Assembly (NCBI RefSeq): GCF_900113415.1
Contig: NZ_FOPH01000023.1
Coordinates: 1-40,157, forward strand
Reading direction: 5' to 3'
Source: Oribacterium sp. WCC10
GTDB lineage: Bacteria > Bacillota > Clostridia > Lachnospirales > Lachnospiraceae
DNA length: 40,157 nt
Shown: positions 3,855 through 40,157 of the stretch, in pieces
Layout of the letters: every line of letters starts with the position of its first letter
How positions within the stretch are numbered: the stretch's first letter is position 1
Program-made: the position numbers and the translations under genes
Notes under the pieces: model-generated
The model's database searches: none
Told to the model about the DNA's origin: nothing
Seen by the model: only the letters and a program-made list of their open reading frames with translations

Positions 3855-3877
3855 ACCAATCTTGGATATATAAAATT

Positions 3878-3994
3878 CAGCAGCACATTGCATACGAATG
3901 TGTACGCGCTGTGCACCATTCGTGAGTGGCAAATACTTTTGAATCTTACATTATAAGATAATAAGAGCACGTAAGGACGCTTTGGGCGTTCTTA
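3878..3994 (+). repeat. intergenic hairpin repeat, copy A, plus adjacent hairpin
   Basis: CAGCAGCACATTGCATACG begins at 3878 and the copy runs to about 3951. It shares the CGAATGTGT core and the GTGAGTGGCAAATACTTTTG segment with copies at 17265 and 23495. This copy has diverged, so both stems are weaker. A separate 9-bp hairpin (TAAGGACGC / GCGTTCTTA, 3972-3980 / 3986-3994, one G-T pair) follows, without a T-run. Both lie between cobJ and cobK. Confidence 0.8.
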
Positions 3995-17212: not shown

Positions 17213-17264
17213 CGTGGAAACAATGAAAGATATGCTGAATTAAGTGCAGAGTTGATCATATTGA

Positions 17265-17339
17265 CAGCAGCACATTGCACACGAATGTGTGCGTTAGCGC
17301 TAATCAGTGAGTGGCAAATACTTTTGACACTCACGTCAT
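17265..17339 (+). repeat. intergenic hairpin repeat, copy B (reference short form)
   Basis: This is the clearest short copy. Hairpin 1 is GCACAC (17277-17282) / GTGTGC (17287-17292) with loop GAAT. Hairpin 2 is GTGAGTG (17307-17313) / CACTCAC (17328-17334) with a 14-base loop GCAAATACTTTTGA. The copy starts with CAGCAGCACATTG and ends near ACGTCAT. It lies between cobS and the TraX-like gene. Confidence 0.9.
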
Positions 17340-17406
17340 TGACATCTGTATGGCATAAATCTTGGATAAATAACAGTGTTAAACAGGAGATGAGGGGATA
17401 TTATTT

Positions 17407-18153
17407 ATGAGAACAAAAGGGCTTAACGGTAATCAGCTTAAAATGATCGCAATGGTTGCGATGACCATAGATCACCTTGCTTCAGTAATATGGCCGGGTT
17501 ATCCGACGGACTGGTGGATAGTTTTACTTCACATCATCGGAAGACTGGCGGCGCCGATTTTCTGGTTTATGGTGGCAGAGGGGTATCATCATACTCATGA
17601 TCTTAAAAAGTATGTGACGAGACTTTTGATTTTTGCGGTTGTCGGACATTTTGCCTATAACTTTGCCTTTGGAATTCCGTTTATTCCCTTTCAGAACAGT
17701 GTATTCAACCAGACCAGTGTGATATGGTCGTTATTCTTAGGTCTCATCGGGCTATGGGTGTCTGATAATGAAGGACTCAGGGAGTGGCAGAAAACATTTA
17801 TCATTCTTCTTTTGACCATACTTGCCTTTTGCGCAGACTGGAGCAGTATTGCAGTTCTTGCGGTAATCTATATCGGAGAAAACCGGGGAAATTTCAAAAA
17901 GCAAATGACACTGGTCATGATGTGGGTGCTGGTTTACGCGATTGTTTATGCGATATTTATTAACCTGGTTTACGGCATAATTCAGCTTTTCGTGTGCCTG
18001 ACTATTCCGCTTTTGAAGGCTTATAACGGGGAGCGCGGAAAGATGAAGAATATGAAATATCTGTTTTATATTTATTATCCGGCGCACCTGATAGTATGCG
18101 GCATTGTCAGAGTGCTGCTGCATGGAAATGTGGGAGTTATGATAGGTGGCTGA
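17407..18153 (+). CDS. TraX family membrane protein
   Basis: The 248-residue protein opens with LNGNQLKMIAMVAMTIDHLA and continues with IIGRLAAPIFWFMVAEGYHHT and KKYVTRLLIFAVVGHF, the pattern of the TraX family (named for a conjugative pilin acetylase but widespread as chromosomal genes of unclear role). Seven or eight hydrophobic segments fill most of the length, so it is an integral membrane protein. GAGGGG precedes the ATG. It lies between cobS and the second cobU-like gene, 15 bp ahead of the latter, so the two are probably co-transcribed. There is no evidence of conjugation genes nearby. Confidence 0.8.
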   Translation: MRTKGLNGNQLKMIAMVAMTIDHLASVIWPGYPTDWWIVLLHIIGRLAAPIFWFMVAEGYHHTHDLKKYVTRLLIFAVVGHFAYNFAFGIPFIPFQNSVFNQTSVIWSLFLGLIGLWVSDNEGLREWQKTFIILLLTILAFCADWSSIAVLAVIYIGENRGNFKKQMTLVMMWVLVYAIVYAIFINLVYGIIQLFVCLTIPLLKAYNGERGKMKNMKYLFYIYYPAHLIVCGIVRVLLHGNVGVMIGG

Positions 18154-18168
18154 AAGGATGGAGGATAA

Positions 18169-18642
18169 ATGATTTTTATCATAGGCGGGATTTGTCAGGG
18201 AAAGCATGATTTTTGCAGGAATGAATTTCCGGATGCAGAAGTGATAGATCATTATGAAGAGAAGATCCGCAGGGAACTGAAAGATGGTAAAGACTCTTTA
18301 TCAGAAGCAGAGAAGTGGCTTGATAATGTGACAGGTATTGGGGCGGAATCAGAGACTGATGGAGGCAATGATTCGGGAGATGTTTTGGAGGATTGTTCGA
18401 ATCGGGATGTGAAGGAATCTGATTTACATGATGTTTCCGGAACGCATCTTGAAACCGGAAATCAGGGACGAAATTCAAGAGAAACCGTCATCATCATGAA
18501 TGAGGTTGGTTCCGGAGTTGTACCAATGGACAAGGGTGAACGGGAATGGCGTGAGGCGGTTGGAAGAGTCAGCTGTATTTTCGCCAGGAGAGCAGACAGA
18601 GTTTACAGATTGATTGCCGGGATTCCACAGAGGTTGAAATAA
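18169..18642 (+). CDS. shortened, divergent CobU homologue
   Basis: The 157-residue product has CobU-like ends. It begins MIFIIGGICQGKHDF, which aligns with the CobU P-loop but replaces GSGKS with CQGKH. It ends VIIMNEVGSGVVPMDKGERE then GRVSCIFARRADRVYRLIAG and IPQRLK, very close to the family's C-terminal consensus (NEVGxGIVP...GRxN...ADxVYxxxAGxPxxLK). The middle, where CobU has the guanylylated histidine and the 'LLDCLT' strand, is replaced by a hydrophilic stretch at about 45-105. It is therefore unlikely to be a complete kinase/guanylyltransferase. It could be a regulatory or partner subunit, or a decaying paralogue. GGAGG lies properly before the ATG. Confidence 0.75.
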   Translation: MIFIIGGICQGKHDFCRNEFPDAEVIDHYEEKIRRELKDGKDSLSEAEKWLDNVTGIGAESETDGGNDSGDVLEDCSNRDVKESDLHDVSGTHLETGNQGRNSRETVIIMNEVGSGVVPMDKGEREWREAVGRVSCIFARRADRVYRLIAGIPQRLK

Positions 18643-18695
18643 GGCGAATATCTCAAGCTGGAGAAAGGATGATGGATTATTTATCCGTTTGGAAA

Positions 18696-18752
18696 ACACT
18701 TTTGACAATCACTGATGGTGCGCAGCACGCACACATTCGTGTGCCCCTTGCA
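18696..18752 (-). repeat. intergenic hairpin repeat, copy C (loop inverted)
   Basis: On the minus strand the GCACAC / GTGTGC hairpin (18729-18734 / 18739-18744) is followed by ATCAGTGATTG as in other copies, but the loop that follows reads TCAAAAGTGTTT instead of CAAATACTTTTGA. The loop is thus in the opposite orientation relative to the first hairpin. It lies between the cobU-like gene and the TauE-like gene. Confidence 0.7.
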
Positions 18753-18819
18753 CCTATTGAGTTTTTAGGAAAATGATATACACTGAGATAATCTTCTACG
18801 ATTGAGAGGTAACAGAATC

Positions 18820-19587
18820 ATGACTATAACTGCACTCACATATCTAATATGCTGTCCCCTGCTGTTTCTTGCCGGGCTTGTTGACTCCATAGGAGGGGGC
18901 GGAGGACTTATCTCACTTCCGGCATATTTACTTGCGGGATTGCCTGTTCATACAGCCATCGCCACCAACAAACTATCAAGCGCCTGTGGAACCACTGTAT
19001 CTACGGTAAGATTTATAAAGGAGGGGCTCATAAACTGGGGCATAGCTGTTCCATCCATAATCGCCGCCATCATAGGTTCCTCCGTCGGAGCAAGGCTTAG
19101 CCTTGTGATACCTGAAAAAGTGCTTGTTTATATACTTGTTGCTGTCCTTCCGGTGACCGCATTTGTAGTTCTAAACAGAAAGATCTTTAAGGATAACGGA
19201 AGCACTGAGGTGGTACATGACAGGAAGACTTATGTAACAGCTGTTCTTGCAGCGCTTATAATCGGTTTTTATGATGGAGTTTACGGCCCCGGTACAGGAA
19301 CATTTCTGATTATTGCATTTACAGTTTTTGCAAAGCTTGGAGTGAAAACTGCAAACGGTCAGACAAAGGCTATTAATCTGACAACAAATATTACCTCGCT
19401 TGTGATATTTATCCTTCACGGACAGGTGCTTTTCACAGTTGGGCTTCCATGTGCGCTCTGTAATATGGCGGGGAACTACATTGGTTCAGGCCTCGTTATG
19501 AAGAACGGCATCAAAGTGGTTCGTCCTTCCATCATTGCGGTGCTTGGCCTTCTTGCAGTAAAAATTGTGACAGAACATATAGTCTGA
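18820..19587 (+). CDS. TauE/SafE (YfcA-like) family membrane transporter
   Basis: The 255-residue protein has the family signature: an N-terminal AGLVDSIGGGGGLISLPAYL, then PVHTAIATNKLSSACGTTV, and the second-half repeat GFYDGVYGPGTGTFLIIAF with TKAINLTTN. About eight membrane segments are visible. Members export or import small anions and some are suspected metal transporters. I use the ATG at 18820, with GAGAGGT 9 bases upstream, rather than the TTG at 18802. It is 15 bp before cobC and thus probably in the same transcript. The location raises the possibility of a cobalt or precursor role, but nothing in the sequence proves a substrate. Confidence 0.85.
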   Translation: MTITALTYLICCPLLFLAGLVDSIGGGGGLISLPAYLLAGLPVHTAIATNKLSSACGTTVSTVRFIKEGLINWGIAVPSIIAAIIGSSVGARLSLVIPEKVLVYILVAVLPVTAFVVLNRKIFKDNGSTEVVHDRKTYVTAVLAALIIGFYDGVYGPGTGTFLIIAFTVFAKLGVKTANGQTKAINLTTNITSLVIFILHGQVLFTVGLPCALCNMAGNYIGSGLVMKNGIKVVRPSIIAVLGLLAVKIVTEHIV

Positions 19588-19602
19588 CCCTGGGAGATAA
19601 TA

Positions 19603-20394
19603 ATGAAACTGTTTCTTATACGACATGGTATGACAAAAGGAAATCAGGAACATAGATATGTGGGGGCAACTGACGAATCTATTCTTCCTTCTGAGAAAGA
19701 GCGACTTCGTACATCGGTTGAAAGATACTTTGGTAACTATCAGAAAGACAATAAAGATTCGAAAATCTATATCAGTCCTATGCGTCGGTGCATGGAAACT
19801 GCGGAATGCCTTTTTCCTGATATGATTTCACAAGGCCGGTATGAAATCATCGATAATTTCCGGGAGATGGATTTCGGAGCGTTTGAATACAGGAATTATC
19901 AGGAGATAAATGAAGATCCGGACCCGGAACACAGAGAGGCTTATCAGAGATATATCGACAGTAACGGTGAAACGGCATTTCCCGGAGGCGAATCAAAAGA
20001 AGAGTTTATAGAGAGAGTTGTCCGGGGATTTAACAGTATCGTTTCGGATTATCCGTTACCATCAAAAAGAAAAAGCTTCATACATATCGAGAGTATTGAT
20101 AGTATTGATGAACTGAAGGGTGAGAAAACCATATCATCAAAAAAGACAGGAAATCCGGAAAACAGTACGAACAGAGTATTTAGTGAACAGAAAAAGGTGA
20201 ATACGGATTCCAATGCCGAAACATTGATTTTTATGGTACACGGCGGCACCATCATGGCACTTCTGGATAGATTCTCAGAGCCTCACAGGGACTACTTTGA
20301 ATGGAGTCTGAAGCCCGGACAGGGATATGAAACGGACATCACAGTTGATCAGCATGGCGACTTGAAAATAATAAACATAAAAAAGATAGGATGA
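19603..20394 (+). CDS. cobC: histidine phosphatase, likely alpha-ribazole phosphatase (CobC)
   Basis: CobC removes the phosphate from alpha-ribazole 5'-phosphate or from the final cobalamin phosphate. The N-terminus MKLFLIRHGMTKGN contains the phosphohistidine RHG motif. SPMRRCMETAE, FREMDFGAFEYRNYQEI and FPGGESKEEFIERV follow, and MVHGGTIMAL supplies the second catalytic histidine. The usual length is near 200; this one has 263 because a Lys/Ser/Asn-rich insert occupies about residues 150-205, just before the HGG motif. The assignment over generic phosphoglycerate mutase-like enzymes rests on the neighbours: cbiB starts 4 bp after its stop. GGGAG precedes the ATG. Confidence 0.87.
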   Translation: MKLFLIRHGMTKGNQEHRYVGATDESILPSEKERLRTSVERYFGNYQKDNKDSKIYISPMRRCMETAECLFPDMISQGRYEIIDNFREMDFGAFEYRNYQEINEDPDPEHREAYQRYIDSNGETAFPGGESKEEFIERVVRGFNSIVSDYPLPSKRKSFIHIESIDSIDELKGEKTISSKKTGNPENSTNRVFSEQKKVNTDSNAETLIFMVHGGTIMALLDRFSEPHRDYFEWSLKPGQGYETDITVDQHGDLKIINIKKIG

Positions 20395-20398
20395 CAAA

Positions 20399-21394
20399 AT
20401 GTACGAAAGAATAATGATACTCATCATGGCACTGATATTAGATCTTGTTTTCGGAGATCCGCACAACTGGTTTCATCCGGTTATGGCCATGGGACGGGCG
20501 ATAGAGTGGCTGGAAGGTTTTCTCAGAAAAGTGTGTCATATTTCCGAAGAAGCAGAGGAAGACAAGGTTAAGAAGAGGATTGCCGGAGGGATACTTGTAG
20601 TGATAGAGCTTCTGGTATTTACATTGATACCTCTCGTGATCATTTATATCAGCCGCATGTTCGGCGAGACCATATCATGGGCTATAAGTGCATTTCTTGC
20701 GTATCAGATGCTTGCCATGAAGCAGCTGAAGGTCGAATCAATGAAAGTGTTCAGGGCGCTTCAGAGAAAGGATATAAATGGCGCAAGAGAAGCGGTTTCC
20801 ATGATAGTCGGAAGAGACACAAAGCGTCTTAATGAATCGGGAATCGCAAAGGCTGCAGTGGAGACGGTGGCTGAAAATGCCTCCGACGGTGTTGTGGCAC
20901 CACTCCTTTTTATGATGGTTTTCGGAGTTGCCGGAGGCTGGTTCTATAAAGCAGTAAATACCATGGATTCCATGATCGGATATAAAAACGAAAAATATCG
21001 ATATTTCGGAACTGTAGCAGCAAGACTCGATGACCTACTGAATTTTATTCCGGCGAGAGTAACTGCACTTTTTATGGTGGTTGCGTCAGCATTTTTGAAT
21101 CTCAACTGGAAGAATGCATTTAAAATCTGGCTGCGTGATGCCAAAAAGTCTACAAGTCCCAACTCCGGACAGACTGAGGCAGTTATGGCAGGAGCTTTGG
21201 GTGTGACACTTTTAGGCGATGCCTGGTACTTCGGTAAGCTTGTGAAAAAACCGGAAATAGGGGATAAGCTTCGGGAGATAAAGCCGGAGGACATTGAAAC
21301 GGCCAATAGAGTGATGTACCTTTCGGTGTTCATGATTTATATAGTCGGAATCCTTATTATGCGGGAAGTTATGGTAGTGTTCCTTTGGGTATAA
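20399..21394 (+). CDS. cbiB: adenosylcobinamide-phosphate synthase (CbiB)
   Basis: CbiB condenses adenosylcobyric acid with aminopropanol phosphate. The N-terminal segment ALILDLVFGDPHNWFHPVMA with MGRAIEWLE is diagnostic. Further family motifs are IVGRDTKRLNESGIAKAAVE, VAENASDGVVAPL, KAVNTMDSMIGYKNEKYRYFG with AARLDDLLNFIPAR, and SPNSGQTEAVMAGALGV. It is an integral membrane protein of 331 residues, a normal length. It starts 4 bp after cobC and an AGGA just before the cobC stop acts as its ribosome site, so the two are translationally linked. (The name cobD is used for this enzyme in some species; here cobD denotes the decarboxylase at 22308.). Confidence 0.95.
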   Translation: MYERIMILIMALILDLVFGDPHNWFHPVMAMGRAIEWLEGFLRKVCHISEEAEEDKVKKRIAGGILVVIELLVFTLIPLVIIYISRMFGETISWAISAFLAYQMLAMKQLKVESMKVFRALQRKDINGAREAVSMIVGRDTKRLNESGIAKAAVETVAENASDGVVAPLLFMMVFGVAGGWFYKAVNTMDSMIGYKNEKYRYFGTVAARLDDLLNFIPARVTALFMVVASAFLNLNWKNAFKIWLRDAKKSTSPNSGQTEAVMAGALGVTLLGDAWYFGKLVKKPEIGDKLREIKPEDIETANRVMYLSVFMIYIVGILIMREVMVVFLWV

Positions 21395-21499
21395 TGCCAA
21401 TAGTATGTGCAAAATTCACTTTAAGGAGATACACTTCTGATAAAAGAAGGTGAAGGAGAAAGTAACACATTTGGGGGCTGAGAGTCGGGAAGCGGTAGT

Positions 21500-22162
21500 A
21501 TGAAATATGAAAATATTGTTCGTGGAACTTTTTTGAAAAGACCTAACCGGTTTATAGCAGAAGTCGATATAGAAGGTCATAAGGAAACCGTGCATGTGAA
21601 AAATACTGGACGGTGCAGTGAACTTCTGGTATCGGGATGTGAGGTTTTTGTCACAGCACCGGGGACTCCGGGAAGGAAAACGAGGTATGACCTTGTGGCG
21701 GTAAGGAAAAGTACAGGCGTGCTTTTCAATATCGATAGTCAGGCCCCCAATAAGGTTGTGAAGGAATGGCTTTCGACGCGGCTTTTTGACAAGGTTATTC
21801 CGGAGTATACTTATGGGGATTCCAGAATCGATTTTTATATGGAGAAGGGGAGCGAAAAGTTCCTGATGGAAGTTAAAGGCTGCACTCAGGAGTTGCACGG
21901 CATCGGTTATTTTCCTGATGCGCCCACGGAGCGGGGAGTTAAGCACATACGGGAACTCATAAAAGCCAAAGCACAGGGGTACAGAACGGTTCTTGCATTT
22001 GTTATTCAGATGGATGGCGTGACTGAAGTGAGACCCAACATGGAGATTCATCCGGAATTTGGAGAGGCTTTCGATGATGCAAAAAATGCCGGGGTAGAGA
22101 TTCTTTTCCTCAGATGTCATGTGGAGCCGGATGGGCTTTGGATAGTGTCAGAAGGGGAATAG
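21500..22162 (+). CDS. sfsA: SfsA family protein (sugar fermentation stimulation protein A homologue)
   Basis: The 220-residue protein matches SfsA throughout: FLKRPNRFIAEV at the N-terminus (an OB-like domain), HVKNTGRCSELL, KTRYDLVAVRK, FNIDSQAPNKVVKEWL, then the nuclease-fold-like FLMEVKGCTQELHGIGYFPD with APTERGVKHIREL and FVIQMDGV. SfsA proteins are widespread, and a DNA-binding or nuclease role has been proposed. The ribosome site is weak (GGGAAG). It sits inside the B12 locus without an obvious functional link. Confidence 0.9.
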   Translation: MKYENIVRGTFLKRPNRFIAEVDIEGHKETVHVKNTGRCSELLVSGCEVFVTAPGTPGRKTRYDLVAVRKSTGVLFNIDSQAPNKVVKEWLSTRLFDKVIPEYTYGDSRIDFYMEKGSEKFLMEVKGCTQELHGIGYFPDAPTERGVKHIRELIKAKAQGYRTVLAFVIQMDGVTEVRPNMEIHPEFGEAFDDAKNAGVEILFLRCHVEPDGLWIVSEGE

Positions 22163-22307
22163 TACTGTTTGAAGGAACAGCGTGAGATATGGAAATGGTC
22201 ACAAATGTCTAAGAGATATTCTACATGAGGTCTTATCGATTGAATGATTGCAAAGATTACATTTGGGAATAAATGTCTGGTTTCGAAGTATTAAGGGGAG
22301 ATTTTAT

Positions 22308-23477
22308 TTGAATTATAATCATGGCGGTGATATATACGGAAATAAGGTAGAGTTGGATTTCTCTGTGAATATCAATCCTTTAGGTATGCCTGAATCTGCT
22401 AAGGAAGCGGCCAAAAGAGGAGTGAATCTGAGCATCGGCTACCCTGATTGGGATCAGAGGGAACTGAGGAGTTCCTTATCGAAATATCTCGATGTATCTG
22501 AAAAGAATCTTCTTTTCGGGAATGGCGCAGCCGATATCATATACCGCCTTATGCAGGTGTTGAAACCTAAAAAGGTGCTTGTTCCGGCACCATCCTTTTC
22601 CGAGTACAGAAAAGCTGCAGCTCTTTACGGAGCAGATGTGGAGGAGTTCTTTCTTAGAGAAGAGGACTCCTTCTCTTTTACTCATGAAACAAAAGGAGCT
22701 CTTTGTAAACGCATAGAGGGACTTTCGGAAGGAGACGTTGTTTTTATTTGTAATCCCAACAACCCTGATGGAGCTGTAATAAATAAAGATTTCCTTCGCC
22801 GTATTTATGATGACTGCGAGAAAAAGAAGGTCTGGCTGGTTGTGGATGAGTGTTTTCTTCCTTTCTTTACCAATGAAAAACAGTATTCCATGATAGGAGC
22901 CGTAGAAACAGGTAAAGTTTCGGGACGTGATAAAAGTCACATGGTCATGATGACTGCTGACGGGGACAGAGAATTTGTACCTCATGGAATGAAAACAGAT
23001 TCCTCAATGGAAAATCACCTTATCATCCTTCGTGCCTTTACGAAAATCTTCGGAATGCCGGGACTAAGACTCGGATATATGGTTACGGAAAATCACAAGC
23101 TCCTTCAGGCTGTCCGAGAGACCATGACACCATGGGATATCAATGTTCCTGCACAGATGGCGGGAGCTGCGGCTTTGAAGGAAGAAGGATTTATCGAAGA
23201 AACCCGCCGTACGGTGGCCCGGGAAAGAAAATATCTGGTATCTGAGATGCAGAAGAACAGACTTGCAGAGAAGATTTATAATCCTGATTCTGAGGCGAAT
23301 TTCATATTATTTAGAGTATCTGAGGCAAATTCAGACCTTAAGGAGAGGCTTCTACAGAGAGGAATACTGATTCGTTCCTGCAGGGATTACATCGGCCTTG
23401 ATGAAAGTTATTTCAGGATATGCGTGAGGACACATGAGGAAAATCTTAAATTGATAAATGAATGGAAGTACCTGTAG
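22308..23477 (+). CDS. cobD: L-threonine-O-3-phosphate decarboxylase (CobD), PLP-dependent
   Basis: CobD makes (R)-1-amino-2-propanol O-2-phosphate, the linker used by CbiB. I start it at the TTG at 22308, 7 bases after AGGGGAG: the product then begins with NYNHGGDIYGNKVELDFSVN, the family's normal N-terminus. A longer reading from 22248 lacks a ribosome site. Typical motifs are FGNGAADIIYRL, FICNPNNPDGAVI, WLVVDECFLPF and ILRAFTKIFGMPGLRLGYMV, which holds the PLP lysine. An extra hydrophilic segment of about 30 residues lies just before the ILRAFTK motif (about 205-235). The length is 389, against about 360 for the family. Repeat copy D follows, then cobQ. Confidence 0.9.
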   Translation: MNYNHGGDIYGNKVELDFSVNINPLGMPESAKEAAKRGVNLSIGYPDWDQRELRSSLSKYLDVSEKNLLFGNGAADIIYRLMQVLKPKKVLVPAPSFSEYRKAAALYGADVEEFFLREEDSFSFTHETKGALCKRIEGLSEGDVVFICNPNNPDGAVINKDFLRRIYDDCEKKKVWLVVDECFLPFFTNEKQYSMIGAVETGKVSGRDKSHMVMMTADGDREFVPHGMKTDSSMENHLIILRAFTKIFGMPGLRLGYMVTENHKLLQAVRETMTPWDINVPAQMAGAAALKEEGFIEETRRTVARERKYLVSEMQKNRLAEKIYNPDSEANFILFRVSEANSDLKERLLQRGILIRSCRDYIGLDESYFRICVRTHEENLKLINEWKYL

Positions 23478-23494
23478 AATCAAGGGAAAATCAT

Positions 23495-23570
23495 CAGCAG
23501 CACATTGAACACGAATGTGTGCGTTGGAGCTGATCAGTGGGGGGCAAATACTTTTGACACTCACGTCATC
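23495..23570 (+). repeat. intergenic hairpin repeat, copy D
   Basis: CAGCAGCACATTGAACACG begins at 23495 and the copy ends near ACGTCATC. The CACGAATGTG core and the GCAAATACTTTTGACACTCAC segment are conserved with copy B. The left strand of hairpin 2 has changed to GTGGGGG, so that stem is weakened. It lies between cobD and cobQ. Confidence 0.85.
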
Positions 23571-35918: not shown

Positions 35919-35971
35919 GTAATTGAATTGGTTGGTGCAGGTGAATCATAGCATCTAAAGAAAGTTATGGC

Positions 35972-36036
35972 GTAAGTGTCAAAAGTATCAAACCATCGTG
36001 CAAGCACTTGCCTTGATACTTTTGACACTTACATCA
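35972..36036. repeat. perfect 20-bp inverted repeat carrying the repeat-family motif
   Basis: GTAAGTGTCAAAAGTATCAA (35972-35991) is exactly complementary to 36013-36032, with a 21-base loop. Each arm carries the ACTTTTGACACT motif of the dispersed repeats. The loop and right arm from CGTGCAAGCAC match a second segment at 37498-37535. A further GTAAGTGTCAAAA lies at about 36114-36126. There is no T-run next to the stem. Confidence 0.9.
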
Positions 36037-37122: not shown

Positions 37123-37242
37123 AATTTCCTCTCAATTAATTGGGGACATAACCCCATTTAAGATAACTACATTCTATTAAACCATACAGTTGTATAAATT
37201 CATAATATATTAAATTTAGCGGGAGATATAGGTTTGATTTAT

Positions 37243-37472
37243 TACAAAAAGAGCCGGTGGGCATCCATCAAAAACGTAAAGCAGAGTCGTAAAAAATCAT
37301 AACAGAACCCCTTAGATAAATTTAAAATTTTTCCCTGGCACCTTCGCCAATGTCGGAGTTTTCATCAGGAAAACTCAGGCGATTGGCGAGGGCTTAATTT
37401 ATCTTAGGGGTTCTGTTGTAGATTTTTCCGACGAAGCGTCCCGTTTTTTATGGATGCCCACCGGCTTTTGTA
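37243..37472. repeat. 230-bp nested near-palindrome flanked by TA (possible MITE)
   Basis: From outside inward: AGCCGGTGGGCATCCAT (37252-37268) pairs perfectly with 37450-37466. AAAAACG (37270-37276) pairs with 37442-37448. ACAGAACCCC and AGATAAATT (about 37301-37325) pair with 37393-37414 with one mismatch. TCGCCAAT (37344-37351) pairs with 37382-37389. A terminal hairpin GAGTTTTC / GAAAACTC (37356-37363 / 37369-37376) caps it. Both ends are TA-CAAAA...TTTTG-TA. No ORF lies inside. Only one copy is in the window. Confidence 0.9.
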
Positions 37473-37497
37473 TATTGAAATGAAAGTCTCAAATCAA

Positions 37498-39603: not shown

Positions 39604-39628
39604 TGAAATCATCAAATCATCCTTCACT

Positions 39629-39810
39629 GCAGCGGGATGCGACAGTCGAACCGCACCGACATGATTGCGAATCATCTGATGATAATATCTCAGTCACAGA
39701 TTTGAGTTCGGAAAACCGAAGGTAAATCATGTGATAGCAATACGTTGGTTTCGTCCTCCCGACAAACTCCCCGTTCGGAAGGCACTATACGCTCGAGTGT
39801 CTACTCTGCT
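39629..39810 (-). promoter_or_regulatory. tetrahydrofolate (THF, folT-type) riboswitch with expanded arm
   Basis: Read on the minus strand the element starts GCAGAGTAG (39809-39801), matching the conserved GGAGAGUAG, and ends GCATCCCGCTGC (39640-39629), matching GCAUCCGCUCC. P1 pairs GCAG with CTGC, a co-varied GGAG/CUCC. P2 pairs GACACTCGA with TCGACTGTC, with one central mismatch. P3 pairs CCTTCCGA with TCGGGAGG around ACGGGGAGTTTG. The invariant ACGAA follows, and the GGTG region precedes the P2 3' strand. Between ACGAA and GGTG there are about 90 nt forming extra hairpins, such as ATGATT/AATCAT, where known examples have about 10 nt. Confidence 0.82.
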
Positions 39811-40002: not shown

Positions 40003-40152
40003 AATCAGTGAATGTCAAAAGTATTTGCCACTCACTGATTAGCGCCGGCGCACACATTCGTGTGCATAGAGCAGGAATCCTTACAGATTCCTTTGAAGCG
40101 CTCAAAGCCGCGTGGCTCCTTCGATTAAAAATCGAAGGCAGTTGTGCTGCTG
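40003..40152 (-). repeat. intergenic hairpin repeat, copy E (long form)
   Basis: Both termini match the short copies: TGTGCTGCTG at 40143-40152 and the AATCAGTGA / TCACTGATT hairpin (40003-40011 / 40032-40040). GCACAC / GTGTGC is at 40050-40055 / 40060-40065. Between the GTGTGC hairpin and the end there are about 75 extra bases with four further hairpins: GGAATC / GATTCC (40074 / 40086), TTTGA / TCAAA (40092 / 40102), GCC / GGC (40107 / 40114) and CCTTCGAT / ATCGAAGG (40118 / 40131). Confidence 0.85.
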
Positions 40153-40157
40153 AACAC

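What the first reader, a model, noticed from the sequence alone, without database searches (positions are those of the whole stretch)
17265..23570. Dispersed two-hairpin intergenic repeat family punctuating the B12 locus
At least five related elements (3878, 17265, 18696, 23495, 40003) share CAGCAGCACATTG, a GCACAC-GAAT-GTGTGC hairpin and a GTGAGTG...CACTCAC hairpin with a conserved CAAATACTTTTGA loop. All lie strictly between genes, four of them inside the B12 locus at cobJ/cobK, cobS/traX-like, cobU-like/tauE-like and cobD/cobQ. I know no named repeat with this sequence. The loop's descending strand includes TTGACA, so some copies could carry a mobile -35 element. Other possible roles are mRNA processing or stabilisation, or a transposable non-autonomous element.
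Basis: partly seen in the sequence, partly recalled or inferred. Interest (0 to 1): 0.75.

Follow-up and report, generated by a model that had tools for sequence, protein, structure and literature searches.

The report
Clostridiales-1 RNA is a jumping element
The hairpin repeats are mostly shortened copies of a small jumping DNA element whose full-length form is the folded RNA family catalogued as Clostridiales-1, so what looked like a vitamin B12 feature is a mobile element shared by many gut bacteria.

Summary
The repeat is real, but it is neither a B12 feature nor nameless. Its 3' hairpin has 101 matches in the 3.64-Mb genome (0 in the reversed control). Complete copies (195 and about 267 bp) have imperfect terminal inverted repeats and 7-bp target duplications, consensus ATNNNAT (exact in 41 of 91 copies, 6.4 expected). 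Complete copies match Rfam RF01699, Clostridiales-1 RNA (70.4 and 54.3 bits, cut-off 48); the window copies are mostly 5'-truncated and do not match it. In the 30 best-scoring loci of 30 other genera, 24 have both termini recognisable and 11 of 30 have an exact 7-bp repeat (1.05 expected). RF01699 occurs in 161 of 299 family genomes, with strong covariation. The sister genome G015 has an empty site for the 17265 copy. So a catalogued 'sRNA' of unknown function behaves as a transposable element with a conserved fold. My searches found no paper saying so, but only listings and passages were seen and Weinberg's supplements could not be read. No transposase was found; movement in trans is inferred. 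The mobile -35 idea is not supported.

The parts
3876..3952 (+). 5'-truncated copy, starts TTCAGCAGCAC and ends CTTACATT; no matching 7-bp flanks
17260..17266 (.). left 7-bp target duplication ATTGACA
17267..17337 (+).
17338..17344 (.). right 7-bp target duplication ATTGACA
18656..18753 (-). degenerate copy; stretch absent from G015 (limits approximate, from the alignment gap)
23495..23567 (+). 5'-truncated copy, starts CAGCAGCAC; flanks only partly alike (AATCAT and ATCATAT)
35969..36035 (+). minimal palindromic member (67 bp), almost only two terminal repeats; flanks AAGTTAT and AAGTAAT (one mismatch)
40005..40157 (-). copy of the longer (about 267-bp) type, cut by the contig end

Best explanation
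The repeats are copies, in this window mostly 5'-truncated, of a non-autonomous transposable element whose full-length form is the Rfam family Clostridiales-1 RNA. Shown: imperfect terminal inverted repeats, a 7-bp target duplication with a near-symmetrical AT...AT preference, an empty orthologous site for one window copy, high copy number, intergenic placement, and a conserved covarying fold across genera. Inferred: it is moved in trans by a DDE-type transposase that binds the terminal repeats; the right end is kept more often than the left, and shortened left ends are tolerated, giving one-ended-like products that still carry 7-bp duplications. Also inferred: the conserved fold acts as RNA, or as folded single strand, in the element's own spread or in limiting harm to neighbouring genes. 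Rough split: mobile member of this family 0.95; DDE transposase in trans 0.65; fold functional for the element 0.7.
For: 101 dispersed matches, 0 in the reversed control; the 7-mer after the right end recurs upstream in 41 of 91 copies against a mean of 6.4 and a maximum of 13 in 200 permutations, falling to 11 for 8-mers, consensus ATNNNAT; empty site in G015; RF01699 scores above the cut-off in two own loci and five loci of other species; 11 of 30 loci in other genera with an exact 7-bp repeat against a permutation mean of 1.05, maximum 4 of 500; head-to-tail copies separated by a shared 7-mer in G310; covariation 131 two-sided cells against 39.0 in shuffles and 15-30 in slid versions; 86 of 91 copies outside ORFs.
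Against: No transposase with these ends was found. 50 of 91 copies, and 19 of 30 loci elsewhere, have no exact 7-mer under the rule used; of the six window copies only one has exact flanks. The window copies do not match RF01699. Variable left ends with duplications are not what a simple two-ended transposase predicts. 7 against 5 bp rests mainly on three copies with unusual outer bases. No expression data.
Confidence: 0.85

Rival explanations
1. RNA-mediated (SINE-like) mobility: the folded Clostridiales-1 RNA is reverse-transcribed at the target from its constant 3' hairpin, and incomplete reverse transcription leaves 5'-truncated copies with 7-bp duplications.
For: Left boundaries spread from 31 to about 219 bp from a constant right end; at least nine non-canonical left ends directly follow an exact 7-mer, while of 14 left-end copies lacking a right end only 1 has an exact 7-mer, next to an end-like sequence; right-end 28-mer matches outnumber left-end 25-mer matches, 101 to 48; covarying fold.
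Against: Inverted repeats at both termini, a near-symmetrical fixed 7-bp target, and a 67-bp member made almost only of two termini fit a two-ended DNA transposase better. Recurrent left boundaries can also be one shortened master copy spreading. No reverse transcriptase was sought.
Confidence: 0.15
2. Cis-regulatory or processing element placed by selection between genes, including B12 genes (mobile -35, RNA processing or stabilisation).
For: Intergenic placement; TTGACA intact in the right end of 73 tested copies; strong hairpins.
Against: Genome-wide spread; no -10 enrichment (2 of 73, background 1.55); no clear strand bias; absent from the same gap in G015. Intergenic placement is also what selection against gene disruption gives.
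Confidence: 0.05
3. A passive palindromic repeat spread by recombination or replication slippage, without transposition.
For: Palindromic ends; head-to-tail copies in G310; many decayed copies without matching flanks.
Against: Target duplications far above permutation and a clean empty site.
Confidence: 0.03

Closest known systems
Rfam RF01699 Clostridiales-1 RNA (Weinberg et al. 2010, PMC2864571; passages seen)
   Same: Full-length copies of this genome and of five loci in other species score above its cut-off; same fold.
   Different: The paper's main text lists it only in Table 1 (probably RNA, not cis-regulatory, not a switch). Here it has element boundaries, inverted termini and 7-bp duplications, plus a 3' hairpin that in L108 and L157 lies outside the matched stretch. 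The window copies are truncated below its threshold.
Bacterial MITEs such as RUP, Correia/NEMIS, ERIC, TIMEs (properties recalled, except that listings were seen)
   Same: Short, no ORF, terminal inverted repeats, target duplications, many intergenic copies.
   Different: 7-bp duplication ATNNNAT (I recall TA for RUP and Correia, 5 bp for Tn3-derived TIMEs); a covarying fold across genera; no partner transposase found.
REP/BIME palindromes with RAYT enzymes (recalled; abstract start seen)
   Same: Abundant intergenic hairpins.
   Different: Target duplications and inverted termini here.
HEARO RNA with IscB (recalled, no call)
   Same: A catalogued structured RNA that proved to belong to mobile elements.
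   Different: No recurrent nuclease gene beside the copies; 7-bp duplications here.

Membership tests
RF01699 Clostridiales-1 RNA | Covariance-model score at or above the gathering cut-off (48 bits), full-length copies | tested here: met
   L002 70.4, L026 54.3 bits in this genome; 93.6-128.3 in five loci of other species
RF01699 Clostridiales-1 RNA | Same score, the window's own copies | tested here: not met
   No RF01699 match in the window at gathering or at E up to 5; the copies are truncated or cut, or minimal
RF01699 Clostridiales-1 RNA | Conserved covarying structure | tested here: met
   22 pairs, 17 with two-sided changes; above shuffles and slid versions; structure derived from the same alignment
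RF01699 Clostridiales-1 RNA | Expressed RNA | not testable with these tools
   No RNA data
MITE | Terminal inverted repeats | tested here: met
MITE | Target-site duplication | tested here: met
   7 bp
MITE | Short, no coding capacity, many copies | tested here: met
   complete copies 195-271 bp, 101 right-end matches
MITE | Autonomous partner with the same termini | tested here: inconclusive
   None found in about 260 loci or around PF00872, PF01609 and PF00665 genes of the genome; other families not searched
REP/BIME | No target duplication (recalled) | tested here: not met
   7-bp duplications
Tn3-derived TIME | 5-bp duplication (recalled) | tested here: not met
   7-mers favoured
SINE-like retroelement | RNA intermediate | not testable with these tools
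   Only indirect signs: truncation series and fold

The most novel reading that the evidence does not exclude
Clostridiales-1 is a bacterial mobile element whose propagation depends on its folded nucleic acid: either the RNA is the intermediate (a SINE-like retroelement with 7-bp duplications and 5'-truncated copies), or the fold recruits or guides its transposase, making it a structured-RNA transposon class common in Lachnospiraceae.
Probability: 0.2. Interest if true: 0.87.

Novelty: new variant of a known kind. Interest (0 to 1): 0.62.

Why it matters
An orphan Rfam 'sRNA' found in over half of the sampled genomes (161 of 299) of a dominant gut family is reassigned as a mobile element. That explains its multi-copy scatter, warns against annotating each copy as an sRNA gene, and poses testable questions: which enzyme moves it, and why does a transposable element keep a covarying RNA fold? 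The 7-bp ATNNNAT rule and empty-site comparison make the tests direct.

Tried and rejected
Mobile -35 promoter: no -10 enrichment. B12-specific punctuation: the family is genome-wide. A 5-bp duplication, my first reading: the 7-mer statistics and three copies with unusual outer bases favour 7. IS256 (PF00872), DDE_Tnp_1 (PF01609) and rve (PF00665) genes of this genome as partner: no matching terminal repeat was found around them; other transposase families were not searched. An ORF-bearing autonomous copy: none seen; the largest recurrent ORF group in about 260 loci looks like ABC ATPases (recalled motif), and one group was a frame running through the element itself. A convergent pair about 2 kb apart in G310 encloses two ORFs that do not look like transposases. 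Viral contigs: one hit with one terminal pattern, none with another; that locus was only included in the ORF grouping and terminus scan. One-ended transposition in IS801 (passages of PMC3189936) is a loose parallel; as I recall that IS91 type leaves no duplication. The MITE review PMC10969869 was term-searched only: 0 occurrences of the six terms. Compensatory changes among this genome's copies: essentially none.
Full report
WHAT WAS CHECKED. The loop CAAATACTTTTGA is exact in four and two mismatches off at 18693; CAGCAGCACATTG is exact in three only. A sixth, 67-bp member lies at 35969-36035. The 40003 copy runs into the contig end (the window is contig C42 of genome G000).

GENOME-WIDE FAMILY. 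The 28-base 3' hairpin has 101 matches (up to 3 mismatches) in the 3,642,652-base genome, none in the reversed control. A left-end internal 25-mer has 48, control 0. The 20-base terminal repeat has 232, control 4. So the B12 locus is not special. I used the 30 loci returned plus 80 stretches, the window and one later locus, merged into 99 islands of 313,062 bases; a few of the weakest listed places were not fetched. In these islands, 91 right ends (up to 5 mismatches, enough flank) were used for the duplication counts.

ANATOMY. Complete copies are 195 bp or about 267-271 bp, with left terminus GATGYAAGGGTCAAAAGTA and right terminus TACTTTTGACACTCACGTC. The 7-mer directly after CACGTC occurs again upstream in 41 of 91 copies; with 7-mers permuted among copies the mean is 6.4 and the maximum of 200 permutations 13; for 8-mers the count drops to 11. 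A few of the 41 will be chance. The other 50 have no exact repeat. The duplicated site is ATNNNAT: of 91 sites, A at position 1 in 80, T at 2 in 85, A at 6 in 67, T at 7 in 73. ATGATAC, TTATTAT and GTTTTAT match exactly on both sides, which favours a 7-bp duplication over 5 bp plus fixed outer bases; this rests on few copies.

TRUNCATIONS. Right ends without a canonical left end are common, with left boundaries spread from 31 to about 219 bp from the right end. At least nine non-canonical left ends directly follow an exact 7-mer, among them window copy 17267-17337, flanked by ATTGACA on both sides. Of 52 left ends, 36 have a right end within reach and 23 of these have the exact 7-mer there; of 14 without a right end (over 200 bases available), 1 has an exact 7-mer, next to an end-like sequence, and two others have one with a single mismatch next to an end-like sequence.

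EMPTY SITE. Genus-mate G015 aligns through the gap at 17265 without the element. With the element and one ATTGACA left out, 141 window bases align to 140 bases of G015 with one single-base gap away from the junction; 37 of 47 bases around the junction are identical without a gap. G015 also lacks the degenerate 18693 copy; at the 23495 site G010 has a different, longer insert with similar ends. Only these sites were compared closely.

IDENTITY. Rfam at gathering thresholds found only a THF riboswitch in the window. With full-length copies, RF01699 Clostridiales-1 scores 70.4 and 54.3 bits in two own loci (cut-off 48) and 93.6-128.3 in five loci of other species, of seven loci searched. The window copies do not match it even at E up to 5. 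RF01699 occurs in 161 of 299 family genomes (130 above the cut-off) and in 0 of 14 control genomes; at most nine candidates per genome were scored, so copy numbers are lower bounds. The terminal 20-mer TGAYGTRAGTGTCAAAAGTA (up to 1 mismatch) is in 16 of 299 family genomes, control 0 in the rows shown. Exact TGATGTRAGTGTCAAAAGTA gave 70 stretches in the species-genome collection; titles are Lachnospiraceae genera (Oribacterium, Lachnospira, Butyrivibrio, Agathobacter, Coprococcus, Catonella and others) or unplaced Clostridium, Clostridia and Clostridiales records, with Treponema bryantii and one Anaerolineaceae MAG as exceptions. The right-end 32-mer is in the own genome and 6 of 16 genus-mates, and in none of 44 other genomes.

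SAME ANATOMY ELSEWHERE. The 30 loci returned (best-scoring, one per genome, 30 genera) were read: 24 have both termini, TGATRCCAGGGTCAAAAGG-like and CTTTTGACCCCAACATC-like. Exact 7-mers flank 11 of 30 under a strict position rule; permutation mean 1.05, maximum 4 of 500; 19 of 30 do not. In the one-contig genome G310 some copies stand head-to-tail separated by exactly the shared 7-mer (ATAATTT, ACAATAT, ATATGAT), and three are followed by the 7-mer plus 17-20 bases of a second left end (L316, L320, L321). Of the further G310 left ends read, many have no matching 7-mer.

FOLD. On 33 elements (24 of those 30 loci, six loci of other species, three own copies; the six loci without a recognisable right terminus dropped) RNAalifold gives 22 pairs, 17 with two-sided changes. 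95.8% of cells pair; 131 cells have two-sided changes against 39.0 in shuffles and 15-30 in slid versions; covariation score 0.519 against 0.199 and at most 0.116. The structure comes from the same alignment, which favours it, and related rows inflate the shuffle contrast. Within this genome the two hairpins show 1 two-sided change each against 45 and 43 broken cells, as expected for decaying insertions.

CONTEXT. 86 of 91 copies lie outside ORFs of 110 aa or more, while 652 of 746 random points in the same islands lie inside one; of the 86, 70 are between tandem, 8 divergent and 8 convergent ORFs; 40 follow and 30 oppose the tandem strand. A -10-like hexamer 16-18 nt after TTGACA occurs in 2 of 73, background 1.55.

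MECHANISM. Inverted repeats at both ends, a fixed duplication with a near-symmetrical target and a minimal palindromic member point to a DDE-type transposase acting in trans (inference). It was not found: no recurrent candidate ORF beside the copies in about 260 loci, and no matching termini around the three transposase families searched. The tolerated left truncations and the covarying fold keep an RNA-mediated or fold-dependent mechanism open.

LITERATURE. Weinberg 2010 (PMC2864571; passages by term search) names Clostridiales-1 once, in Table 1: probably RNA, not cis-regulatory, not a switch. Searches for the family name, its accession and related terms listed no paper that appears to describe it as mobile; I saw listings and abstract starts only, the other hits were not opened, and the supplements of Weinberg 2010, which may comment on it, could not be read.

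Noticed in passing
window 37240-37475: A 230-nt near-perfect inverted repeat between two ORFs; a second dispersed repeat family: the DNA search of the own genome gave 27 match rows at 67-100% identity, including self and reverse-strand self matches; folds at -121.8 kcal/mol, only spurious miRNA hits in Rfam.
   Followed up: partly
window 39628-39810 (-): THF riboswitch RF01831, 64.4 bits.
   Followed up: no
L320, L321, L316 (G310): Complete copies followed by the 7-bp repeat and 17-20 bases of a second left end, then unrelated sequence; origin unexplained.
   Followed up: partly
own genome C12:14964, C14:102533, C26:116953, C36:116185: Four copies share a left end TGATGTAAGGATTCC, as if from a deletion between two GTAAGG stretches that then spread.
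   Followed up: no
L318 2733-3101 (G310): An ORF resembling a TnpB C-terminus (recalled motif) lies about 180 bp from one copy; a single case.
   Followed up: no
L096, L108, L116, L159, L170: Five records from different genomes carry a terminal-repeat hit beside the same conserved gene neighbourhood, perhaps an old shared insertion.
   Followed up: no
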